Source of the DNA: Romanomermis culicivorax
Taxonomy: Eukaryota; Nematoda; Enoplea; Mermithida; Mermithidae
Reading direction: 5' to 3'
Assembly (NCBI GenBank): GCA_963922205.1
Contig: CAWUHX010000250.1
Coordinates: 62,001 to 126,000, forward strand
Length of the DNA: 64,000 nucleotides
Made by a program: the position numbers and the translations under genes. This document shows, one piece after another, positions 37,610 to 47,102 of this stretch. The notes under the pieces were generated by a model. The model ran no database searches. It saw only the letters and a program-made list of their open reading frames with translations, and was not told the DNA's origin. Positions within the stretch are counted from its first letter, which is position 1. The number at the start of each line of letters is the position of its first letter.

Positions 37610-38618
37610 TGTTACGTAAGGGTTAATTCTCTGATTACGTAAACGCCTTCTAAAATATTCATTTATTAAAATTTAATATCGACAGGCTAAATTAGGATAA
37701 TGTGGATAAGGCTGGGGACATGAGCAGGAGAATAAGAGCAACTGAGTGAAAAAAAGGAAGTTGAGAAACTACTAAATATGAGGCGGGGAAGTGAGATTCT
37801 ATGATGGGATAGGCGTCGTCCCGAGGATAAAATATTGGCGGATAACCGTCACCGATAAACACACACACAACTGGACGGATGAACGTCGTCCTCAACAAAT
37901 ACAAACAAACTGGATGGATGAATGTCGTCCAAGCAAAATACAAACAGCTGGATGGATGAATGTCGTCCAAGACAAAATACAAACAACTGGATGGATGAAC
38001 GTCGTCCAAGAAAAATAAGCAACCAGACGGATGAACGTCGTCCAAAACAAAATACACGGAGAGGTAGGGAACACACGTAGTCAGTAAACTGAGATGCTGC
38101 CAATTTTCGGAAATCGGAAGGATGAACTAACTCCTGTTTTTCCTTCTTTCCCGAGGATCTGGAAAAAGAGGTGGGGTTTTGGTGAGGAGAATCTCATTCG
38201 CTAGAATTGTTTATTGGGAATGGGAAGAAATCGTTTGAACCTGATTGGTTGAACGTGCTTACGACCGGTTTCTCGAAGTTGTCCACCCGTAGGGTGGGAG
38301 CTGGTAAGTGGAAAAAAGGGATTAGTAGTTCTCTGTTTTTTGGGCTCTTATTTTCCCACTGTAATCCTTTCCATACGTATTTTACGATTTCCGAGTAAAT
38401 AATAGAATGAAAATGCATTAATCGTTTTGGCAAATTAATGTAAAAAATGTACAAAACAATGGGCTACTTCACCTACATTTTTCCTAATGGTAAAAATGGA
38501 AAAACAACTTAAAAATAGATTACTGTAAAATTACTACACGAAACTAATTTGGGCGAAATTATACAGTAACTTAAGCTTAGCTTAATTTACATAATTTACA
38601 AATTCACTTATCCTGACA
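37610..38618 (-). repeat. 3' LTR
   Basis: 1009 bp, direct repeat of 46165-47102. A polyadenylation signal AATAAA (- strand, 37662-37667) lies about 50 bases from its downstream end. It includes five tandem units of about 38 bp. A polypurine tract abuts it at 38619. Confidence 0.95.
37866..38052. repeat. LTR minisatellite, five units
   Basis: Five 36-39-bp units of the form CTGGATGGATGAA(T/C)GTCGTCCAA plus an AAATACAAACAA-like spacer. The 5' LTR has only three (about 46428-46537), which accounts for the 71-bp LTR length difference. Confidence 0.9.
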
Positions 38619-38631
38619 CCTCCCTTCTTTA
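38619..38631 (-). other. Polypurine tract
   Basis: The - strand reads TAAAGAAGGGAGG immediately before the 3' LTR, the position and composition needed to prime plus-strand synthesis. Confidence 0.8.
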
Positions 38632-38669
38632 TAAAGCAAACGTCCTCGTTTGGGCAGGTCACAATTCGA

Positions 38670-39385
38670 TCAAAGCTGGTGAATCGGGTCGAGCAGAACA
38701 GTGGGTGGAGCTACGCTGAAATTGGCGGAAGGCGTTTTCTGGATCGGGATGCCGTTGATTTTCATCATTTTATTGATTTGAAGGGATGTTGACTTTTGGA
38801 TGATACAGCTGGGTATTGTTGACGTGGATTGCCTCTTCTCGATCTGTTTTGGGGTTATGGATCCAGAGGTTGGGGCAACATATCGGTATAATTTTGTAGG
38901 GACCAAGGTGTAGGGGGGCCCAACTTAGACGTTAGTCCTTGTTTGACTGTTTGGATGGGTTTGAGGACCAGGTCACCAACTTTATATTCGTGGTTGTGAG
39001 TTTTCATGTCATACTTTTTTGAATAAAGAGCTTGGCTATTCCTTATGCGGTCCTGGACAATGGTCAAAGCGGTGTGAAAATGATGTTTGATGTCATTGAC
39101 ATAATCGCTCATGTCTATGGCATAGGGCGACAGTGGGGTTTGAGAAATATCTGAGGGGAGGTCTGGTTGTCGACCATATAACAATTCAAAGCGGGAATAG
39201 CCAGTGCTTTCATTTTGGTGAATATTTGTGGCAAAAATGGCAAAAGGGAGATGGTCATCCCAATCAGTATGCCAATCCTCAACATACATCCGCATGCGGA
39301 CAACAAGGGTTTGGTTTGCACGTTCGACTTCGCCGTTGGCCATGGGATGGTAGGGGGTAGTGTGGACTTTTCTGGTTTTACAAAG
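38670..39385 (-). pseudogene. Integrase, C-terminal part after in-frame TGA
   Basis: It continues the integrase frame of the 39386-41236 ORF after one TGA (39386-39388). The catalytic Glu context reads NGEVERANQTL near 39335. The region goes on through KVGDLVLKP near 38975, then changes frame at a C run near 38910 and ends at 38670. It is the expected end of a Ty3/gypsy-like integrase; no chromodomain was recognised. Confidence 0.8.
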
Positions 39386-46001: not shown

Positions 46002-46144
46002 ACTTTTCTTTTGTTCAGCCAGAGTTTGTTAACAAGGAGGAGACGGAAAAGGAATGGTAAATGGAACTTTTAGAATGATGGAATGGGACTTTTTCAACAG
46101 GAAGGGGGGGAATAAAAAAACTAGGGGCTTACTTTTTTCAGTTC

Positions 46145-46162
46145 GAATTAGTATGGTCACCA
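46145..46162 (-). other. Primer-binding site
   Basis: Two bases inside the 5' LTR, the - strand reads TGGTGACCATACTAATTC. It begins with the TGG that pairs with a tRNA CCA end. The primer tRNA was not identified. Confidence 0.65.
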
Positions 46163-46164
46163 CT

Positions 46165-47102
46165 TGTTACATAAGGGTCAATTCTCTGATTACGTAAACG
46201 CCTTCTAAAATATTTGTTTATTAAAATTTAATATCGACAGGCTAAATTACGATAATGTGGATAAGGCTGGGGACACGAGCAGGAGAATAAGAGCAACTGA
46301 GTGAAAAAAAGGAAGTTGAGAAACTACTAAATATGAGGTGGGGAAGTGAGATTCTATGGAGGGATAGGCGTCGTCCCGAGAATAAAATATTGGCGGATAA
46401 CCATCGCCGATAAACACACACACACACAACTGGATGGATGAACGTCGTCCTCAACAAATACAAACAAACTGGATGGATGAACATCGTCCAAGCAAAATAC
46501 AAACAGCTGGACGGATGAACGTCGTCCAAAACAAGATACACGAAGAGGTAGGGAACACACGTAGTCGGTAAACTGAGACACTGCCGATTTTGAGAAATCG
46601 GAAGGATGAACTAACTCCTGTTTTTCCTTCTTTCCCGAGGATCCGGAAAAAGAGGTGGGGTTTTGGTGAGGGGAATCTCATTTGCTAGAATTGTTTATTG
46701 GGAATGGGAAGAAATGGTTTGAACCTGATTGGTTGAACTTGCTTACGACGGGTTTCTTGAAGTTGTCCACCCCTAGGGTGGGAGTTGGTAAGTGGAAAAA
46801 AGGGATTAGTAGTTCTCTGTTTTTTGGGCTCTTATTTTCCTACTGTAATCCTTTCCATACGTATTTTATGATTTCCGAGTAAATAATAGAACGAAAATGC
46901 ATTAATCATTTTGGCAAATTAATGTAAAAAATGTACAAAACCATAGGCTACTTAACCTACATTTTTCCTAATGGTAAAAATGGAAAAACAACTTAAAAAT
47001 GGATTACTGTAAAATTACTACACAAAACTAATTTGGACGAAATTATACAGTAACTTAAGCTTAGCTTAATTTACATAATTTACAAGTTTACTTATCGTGA
47101 CA
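46165..47102 (-). repeat. 5' LTR
   Basis: 938 bp, near-identical to the 3' LTR apart from scattered substitutions and two fewer minisatellite units. The differences show the insertion is not brand-new. Confidence 0.95.

What the first reader, a model, noticed from the sequence alone, without database searches (positions are those of the whole stretch)
37610..47102. LTR retroelement with an envelope-like gene between gag and pol
Known env-bearing retroviruses and errantiviruses place env after pol. Here the order on one strand between matched LTRs is gag, ORF2, Cys-rich glycoprotein with signal and sequons, membrane anchor, protease, RT, RNase H, integrase, then polypurine tract directly against the 3' LTR, leaving no room for a 3' env. 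I know of no described lineage with this order.
Basis: partly seen in the sequence, partly recalled or inferred. Interest (0 to 1): 0.88.

Follow-up and report, generated by a model that had tools for sequence, protein, structure and literature searches.

The report
Retroelement with envelope inside its polyprotein

Summary
It is no local accident. A diverged second element in the window has the same order, and the genome has 128 scored glycoprotein places. In 18 of 18 loci sampled over about nine families, glycoprotein, protease and the start of RT share one frame. In 29 of 128 rows that frame is open for 2,400 aa or more, so the undamaged form is ONE polyprotein: Gag - internal signal - Env - TM - protease - RT - RNase H - integrase. 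In three copies it ends 44 nt before to 15 nt inside the 3' LTR: no room for a 3' env. The glycoprotein matches Pfam Monjiviricetes_fusion above cut-off in 9 of 9 families, so class III by sequence; the fold was not shown. Three long-frame copies have LTR pairs 99.5-100% identical. The pol is Ty3/Gypsy type. I found no described lineage with this order; nearest are Atlas virus and Anakin. One key paper was not readable.

The parts
46165..47102 (-). 5' LTR of element A (begins TGTCACG at 47102)
   Evidence: 93-94% to the 3' LTR
37610..38618 (-). 3' LTR of element A
47103..47106 (.). target-site duplication ATAT, 5' side (partner 37606-37609)
   Evidence: sequence read
46145..46162 (-). primer binding site TGGTGACCATACTAATTC
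   Evidence: sequence read
44751..46001 (-). gag (capsid, CCHC knuckles)
   Evidence: Ty3_capsid E 0.007, below cut-off; nucleocapsid knuckle E 0.03; A-family copy L047 gag: Ty3_capsid E 9e-5, below cut-off
   Evidence: no Pfam family
44053..44250 (-). internal signal sequence and mature N-terminus of the glycoprotein (in another frame here)
43124..44083 (-). main block of the class III-type fusion glycoprotein
42741..43160 (-). glycoprotein C-terminal part (two open stretches, 43160-43035 and 43031-42741)
42522..42602 (-). transmembrane anchor of the glycoprotein, in frame with protease (approximate ends)
   Evidence: Kyte-Doolittle up to 2.82 over 19 residues
41157..42710 (-). ORF holding glycoprotein stem, TM, tail, aspartyl protease and start of RT
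   Evidence: Asp_protease_2 31.2 bits, cut-off 24.3
39386..41236 (-). reverse transcriptase, RNase H, integrase zinc finger and core
   Evidence: nearest solved chain: Ty3 Gag-Pol, E 9e-93
38855..39343 (-). integrase C-terminal part
   Evidence: collinear match in several relatives; no integrase family in Pfam
38619..38630 (-). polypurine tract AAAGAAGGGAGG abutting the 3' LTR
50955..51164 (+). element B, 5' LTR remnant
   Evidence: 87% to 60949-61156
54744..55183 (+). element B, gag
   Evidence: 34-38% aa to A, E 9e-20
57127..58588 (+). element B, glycoprotein from signal region to C-terminus, in several open pieces
   Evidence: 32-59% aa to A, E to 3e-40
58649..58810 (+). element B, stretch with glycoprotein transmembrane segment (by eye)
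59381..60736 (+). element B, RT and RNase H
   Evidence: 51% aa to A, E 3e-128
60949..61156 (+). element B, 3' LTR remnant

Best explanation
This is a damaged copy of a recently active Ty3/Gypsy retroelement lineage that captured a class III-type fusion glycoprotein of the Monjiviricetes (chuvirus/bornavirus) kind and keeps it inside one polyprotein: Gag - linker - internal signal sequence - Env ectodomain - transmembrane anchor - protease - RT - RNase H - integrase. SHOWN: the order, the single frame, two recurring hydrophobic segments at the edges of the ectodomain, conservation, recent insertions. INFERRED: the full-length RNA is translated at the ER; the internal signal threads the ectodomain into the lumen and signal peptidase cuts Gag off; the anchor stops transfer, so protease and polymerase stay in the cytosol as the Env tail; the aspartyl protease then cuts them free and particles bud with Env on the surface. 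It would work like the capsid-glycoprotein polyproteins of alphaviruses and flaviviruses (recalled), without the spliced env mRNA that retroviruses use, and give the element a route from cell to cell.
For: Order and frame: 18 of 18 env-selected loci (L031-L048, about nine families, some families two or three times) have env, TM/protease and the start of RT in order and in one frame; 13 of 18 have no stop in that frame over the whole 6.7-kb stretch and the other 5 break only within the RT/RNase H/integrase part; gag is recognised upstream in 14 of 18. In 29 further A-family loci, gag/ORF2 upstream in 26 of 29 and protease ORF downstream in 29 of 29. 29 of 128 env rows sit in a frame of 2,400 aa or more without a stop in the match (counted by eye). 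Selection of loci by RT instead of env: env at the expected place in 18 of 20. Glycoprotein identity: PF24664 at 51-72 bits (cut-off 27) in 9 of 9 families; metagenome relative P0001 47.7 bits plus BDV_G 27.7 bits, cut-off 27; the profile's only three PDB hits at E 1 or less are two chains named Envelope glycoprotein B and one named ORF8, which I recall as a herpesvirus gB. Topology: a hydrophobic segment just before the mature N-terminus and one after the ectodomain in 9 of 9 families, none inside the ectodomain or the protease-RT piece. Selection: env dN/dS 0.09 against 0.06 for RT in the one pair with unsaturated dS, two copies of one family. Env and RT trees share four groups. Activity: LTR pairs 99.5%, 100%, 99.8%; 4-bp duplications readable in two of the three copies. 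No 3' room: frame ends 40 nt before, 15 nt inside, and 44 nt before the 3' LTR in three copies.
Against: No RNA or protein data: translation as one chain, signal-peptidase cleavage, membrane topology, budding and infectivity are all inferred. A single frame forces equal amounts of Gag, Env and Pol unless something regulates it, which is unlike retroviruses. Neither sequon density (ectodomain 1.3-2.2, gag side 0.2-1.4 per 100 aa) nor cysteine density (ectodomain 3.4-3.5, gag side 1.9-4.1) cleanly separates the ectodomain from the gag side, and two families (L035, L045) have further hydrophobic stretches on the gag side that score about as high as the weakest signal. In 4 of 18 loci no gag was recognised upstream, and the gag-side piece of L045 has no Pfam family. 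The class III fold is not shown: structure model pLDDT 31; single sequences find gB in PDB only at E 0.71 or nothing (P0001); two of three glycoprotein pieces of element B have no Pfam match. Within one trio the env and RT trees disagree at moderate support. 2 of 20 RT-selected loci showed no env.
Confidence: 0.72

Rival explanations
1. Same gene order, but Env is made separately: splicing (or internal initiation) yields an mRNA that starts at or just before the signal sequence, giving Env-Pol or Env alone, while Gag comes from the full-length RNA by an unknown stop mechanism.
For: Retroviruses and errantiviruses splice env (recalled). In some families a Met lies inside or close to the signal (L035 18, L037 17, L041 25 residues before the mature end). 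No RNA data exclude it.
Against: No conserved Met: the last Met before the mature N-terminus lies 4 to 98 residues away, and in L034, L040 and L047 it is 64 or more residues upstream. The frame is kept open through the gag-env junction in families at 43-48% identity, which separate expression would not need.
Confidence: 0.2
2. The glycoprotein block is a passenger: a viral or host gene that inserted into one copy, or a nested element with its own edges.
For: In the window copy the frame is broken around the block.
Against: Same place and frame in about nine families, same place in element B and in 18 of 20 RT-selected loci; low dN/dS; shared env and RT groups.
Confidence: 0.01
3. The domain is no longer an envelope: it is kept as an intracellular membrane tether for Gag and Pol, so the element spreads only inside the cell.
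For: Its fixed place between Gag and Pol with a membrane segment on either side would also suit a tether.
Against: The fusion-domain region and many ectodomain cysteines are conserved across families at 45-49% identity, more than a bare tether needs.
Confidence: 0.1

Closest known systems
Atlas virus (Belpaoviridae, hookworm; PMC9094657, passages read)
   Same: LTR retroelement with env inside one uninterrupted polyprotein (2,828 residues, no stops or introns); env related to that of a negative-strand RNA virus family.
   Different: Order is Gag-Pol-Env with env last; BEL/Pao polymerase; class II phlebovirus-like Gc instead of class III.
Anakin (BEL/Pao elements of mosquitoes with chuvirus-like glycoprotein; PMC7642597, passages read)
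   Same: Glycoprotein captured from the chuvirus kind of virus by an LTR retroelement.
   Different: BEL/Pao polymerase. The order within Anakin was not stated in the passages I read. The follow-up arthropod survey (PMC10084718, passages) reports no clear capture by Gypsy elements.
Errantiviruses / envelope-carrying gypsy elements (PMC13172572, passages; Chary and Hayashi 2025 eLife not held, not read)
   Same: Ty3/Gypsy type elements with an envelope; type III fusion glycoproteins are mentioned for gypsy elements, so a class III env in Gypsy is not itself new.
   Different: Env is a separate gene after pol (recalled; no passage I read states the order for the type III group).
TelKA of bdelloid rotifers (PMC5408684, passages)
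   Different: Paramyxovirus F type, encoded as ORF3 downstream of pol.
Alphavirus and flavivirus structural polyproteins (recalled)
   Same: Capsid, then internal signal sequence, glycoprotein and anchor in one chain: what this works like.
   Different: Positive-strand RNA viruses, no reverse transcription; no relationship claimed.

Membership tests
Ty3/Gypsy (Metaviridae) | pol order protease-RT-RNase H-integrase | tested here: met
Ty3/Gypsy (Metaviridae) | RT nearest to Ty3 | tested here: met
   Ty3 Gag-Pol E 9e-93 and Ty3 RT E 2e-73 best of all solved chains; no tree against named Metaviridae clades could be built
Ty3/Gypsy (Metaviridae) | LTRs with TG...CA ends and 4-6 bp target duplication | tested here: met
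   ATAT in A; CATT and AATG in two further copies; read by eye
Errantivirus / gypsy with env | env as a separate gene after pol | tested here: not met
Errantivirus / gypsy with env | baculovirus F-type envelope | tested here: not met
   Pfam scans list no F-type family for the glycoprotein of any of 9 families
Monjiviricetes-type class III fusion glycoprotein | match to PF24664 above the gathering score | tested here: met
   9 of 9 families, 51-72 bits against 27; the damaged window fragment alone 17 bits, below cut-off
Monjiviricetes-type class III fusion glycoprotein | class III fold | tested here: inconclusive
   model of the window fragment pLDDT 31; profile hits in PDB are two gB chains and one chain named ORF8, E 0.0011-0.02
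Anakin (BEL/Pao with chuvirus glycoprotein) | BEL/Pao polymerase | tested here: not met
   RT_RNaseH families in Pfam and Ty3 as nearest solved chain; no BEL peptidase family listed; no tree with BEL elements
Atlas-like polyprotein elements | env inside the single Gag-Pol polyprotein | tested here: met
Atlas-like polyprotein elements | env at the C-terminus, class II | tested here: not met
Infectious retrovirus | enveloped particles that enter cells | not testable with these tools
   sequence only

The most novel reading that the evidence does not exclude
A distinct Ty3/Gypsy lineage in which Gag and Pol flank a class III fusion protein within a single membrane-threaded polyprotein, so that envelope, capsid and polymerase are made and assembled as one unit at the membrane, with no spliced env message: an alphavirus-like way to be an enveloped retroelement, arising from one capture of a Monjiviricetes glycoprotein and now diversified into at least about nine families in one genome.
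Probability: 0.55. Interest if true: 0.92.

Novelty: new variant of a known kind. Interest (0 to 1): 0.86.

Why it matters
It breaks the rule that env lies after pol and needs its own message, and it does so in a multi-family, recently active lineage rather than a relic. It shows that a fusion glycoprotein can be held inside Gag-Pol, which makes testable how a retroelement could acquire infectivity without evolving splicing. It also warns that env searches limited to the region after pol would miss such elements. The new point is the place and the single chain; class III glycoproteins in gypsy elements are already mentioned in print (PMC13172572, passages).

Tried and rejected
Rejected: host gene or nested insertion (same place across families); [quoted passage not shown] BEL/Pao membership. 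Led nowhere: tRNA and Rfam scans of the window (0 hits); structure model; scans of viral contigs and prokaryote genome contigs; protein database searches found one glycoprotein relative, P0001, whose gene order is unknown, and three distant pol relatives. Host not identified: the cytochrome oxidase search did not complete. Total copy number not settled: the second env query did not complete; of 3,367 first-look candidates only 128 were scored, so 3,367 is not a count. Literature: 10 searches; 'gag-env-pol' with LTR retrotransposon 0 papers, 'located between gag' with env gene 0, 'between gag and pol' 15, seen as a listing only.
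Full report
1. Observation. The finding's coordinates are right to the base. Element A is on the minus strand between a 938-nt 5' LTR (47102-46165) and a 1,009-nt 3' LTR (38618-37610); a 39-nt tandem repeat inside the LTR, about 3 units in one and 5 in the other, accounts for most of the length difference. The insertion has a 4-bp duplication ATAT, a primer binding site 2 nt behind the 5' LTR and a purine tract against the 3' LTR. LTR distance is K2P 0.050 over 935 aligned sites. The copy is damaged: the signal/N-terminal stretch and the main glycoprotein block are in different frames, stops follow the block, and pol is split near 41.2 kb.

2. A second element in the same window. 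With element A masked, its protein pieces were searched against the rest of the window: gag at 54744-55183, the glycoprotein from its signal region to its C-terminus at 57127-58588, and RT/RNase H at 59381-60736, all on the plus strand and in the same order, at 32-59% identity, with E from 5e-3 (a 33-residue piece) to 3e-128; 180 shuffled queries gave 0 hits. This element B also has LTR remnants (50955-51164 and 60949-61156, 87%). A 378-nt palindromic stretch (58974-59351) and no protease match lie between its TM and RT; its integrase was not found.

3. Genome-wide. The window lies in an unnamed 359-Mb assembly of 595 contigs. The glycoprotein fragment gave 128 scored rows, all at E 2.1e-84 or better, out of 3,367 first-look candidates: an A family at 73-92% and others at 43-48% identity. 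In 29 of 128 rows the glycoprotein sits in a frame of 2,400 aa or more with no stop in the match (counted by eye from the table). In 29 further A-family loci the pieces lie in the order gag/ORF2 (recognised in 26 of 29), glycoprotein, TM/protease (29 of 29). In 18 loci chosen over about nine families (L031-L048; some families two or three times), glycoprotein, TM/protease and the start of RT are collinear and in one frame in 18 of 18; gag is recognised by tblastn in 14 of 18; the glycoprotein frame has no stop over the whole 6.7-kb stretch in 13 of 18, and the 5 others break only within the RT/RNase H/integrase part. Loci were also chosen without regard to env. The RT query scored 71 rows out of 10,212 first-look candidates; of its 24 A-family rows (element A included) 22 have a glycoprotein row, by my comparison of the two tables. 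Of 20 RT-selected loci fetched (the first 18 of the 47 rows at 59-61% identity plus the two A-family rows without a partner), 18 have the glycoprotein where expected; L065 and L076 do not. Two loci of another single-ORF Gypsy-type family (L049, L050; 2,305 aa) gave no glycoprotein hit.

4. One frame from LTR to LTR. In three copies the frame ends 40 nt before, 15 nt inside, and 44 nt before the 3' LTR; one search gives their open frames as 2,471, 2,536 and 2,548 aa. There is no room for a 3' env. Their LTR pairs are 99.5% (1,086 nt, purine tract included), 100% (809 nt) and 99.8% (534 nt) identical, with 4-bp duplications CATT and AATG readable in the last two: these insertions are recent. The three were picked because their frames were long, so they say nothing of the average age.

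5. The glycoprotein. Pieces from 9 families reach 51-72 bits against PF24664 Monjiviricetes_fusion (cut-off 27), 9 of 9; BDV_G is above its cut-off in L035 only among these. The one protein found outside this genome's loci, P0001 (338 aa, JGI, 4.2-kb contig), also passes both cut-offs. A profile of nine families plus P0001 finds three PDB chains at E 1 or less: two named Envelope glycoprotein B and one named ORF8, which I recall as a herpesvirus gB (E 0.0011-0.02). Single sequences do worse: the window fragment finds gB at E 0.71, P0001 nothing. So it is a class III-type fusion protein by sequence; a model of the window fragment failed (pLDDT 31), so the fold is not shown. Families are 45-49% identical to the A family with many invariant cysteines.

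6. Topology and selection. In 9 of 9 families a hydrophobic segment ends within 23 residues before the conserved mature N-terminus (a motif around CG...GH), and another follows the ectodomain, in most families trailed by basic residues, before the protease; none lies in the ectodomain or the protease-RT piece. Two families (L035, L045) have further hydrophobic stretches on the gag side scoring about as high as the weakest signal (L031). No Met before the signal is conserved (last Met 4-98 residues away). Cysteine density is 3.4-3.5 per 100 aa in the ectodomain against 1.3-2.0 in pol but 1.9-4.1 on the gag side; sequon density is 1.3-2.2 in the ectodomain, 0.1-1.1 in pol and 0.2-1.4 on the gag side, so neither separates ectodomain from gag side cleanly. 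The one pair with unsaturated synonymous sites, two copies of one family, gives dN/dS 0.09 for env and 0.06 for RT; over 45 pairs mean pN/pS is 0.42 (env) and 0.30 (RT). Env and RT trees share the groups L041+L046, L034+L040, those four together, and L031+L037+L038; within that trio they disagree (L037+L038 in env at 81/84, L031+L038 in RT at 87/85), and deeper RT forks are open. This fits one capture followed by mostly joint inheritance; occasional exchange is not excluded.

7. Mechanism. The anatomy is that of a membrane-threaded polyprotein, as in alphavirus and flavivirus structural proteins (recalled): Gag in the cytosol, ectodomain in the lumen, Pol in the cytosol as the tail of Env, signal peptidase and the aspartyl protease as the cutters. 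All of this is inferred. One family (L035) has a second aspartyl protease domain before the glycoprotein (28.8 bits, cut-off 28.2) besides the one after it, which could free Gag early. Rivals are separate expression by splicing (probability about 0.2) and a tether role without entry (0.1).

8. Known kinds. It is Ty3/Gypsy by pol order, RT and ends. It is not an errantivirus by env place or env type, not Anakin by polymerase, and not Atlas-like by env place or class, although Atlas virus shows that an env inside a retroelement polyprotein exists (PMC9094657, passages). In ten searches of a 5.39-million-paper library, mostly seen as listings, I saw no report of this order; the survey most likely to hold one (Chary and Hayashi 2025) is not held. 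I call it a new variant of a known kind.

Noticed in passing
window 54744-61156 (+): Second, more decayed element B with the same gag-env-RT order; lacks a protease match and an integrase and holds a 378-nt palindromic stretch (58974-59351).
   Followed up: yes
L035 (G000:C52:789394-796096), about 840-1214: A second aspartyl protease domain upstream of the glycoprotein in addition to the one downstream; L036 shows the same tblastn match.
   Followed up: partly
L049, L050: Another Gypsy-type family with one 2,305-aa frame (gag weak, protease, RT, integrase), no glycoprotein hit, and long stretches without a Pfam match.
   Followed up: partly
window 37863-38056 and 46422-46540: 39-nt tandem repeat inside the LTRs, about 5 units in the 3' LTR and 3 in the 5' LTR.
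   Followed up: no
window 35741-37435 (+): Open stretches just outside the 3' LTR that by eye look like gag of another element; no Pfam family.
   Followed up: partly
G000:C122:532103-533929: RT row with an open frame of 3,612 aa, about 1,000 aa longer than most of its relatives.
   Followed up: no
window 1224-1649 (-): Reverse transcriptase fragment (RVT_1 E 1e-10), by eye of the non-LTR type.
   Followed up: no
window 18564-18658: Perfect two-copy tandem duplication of a 47-nt unit.
   Followed up: no
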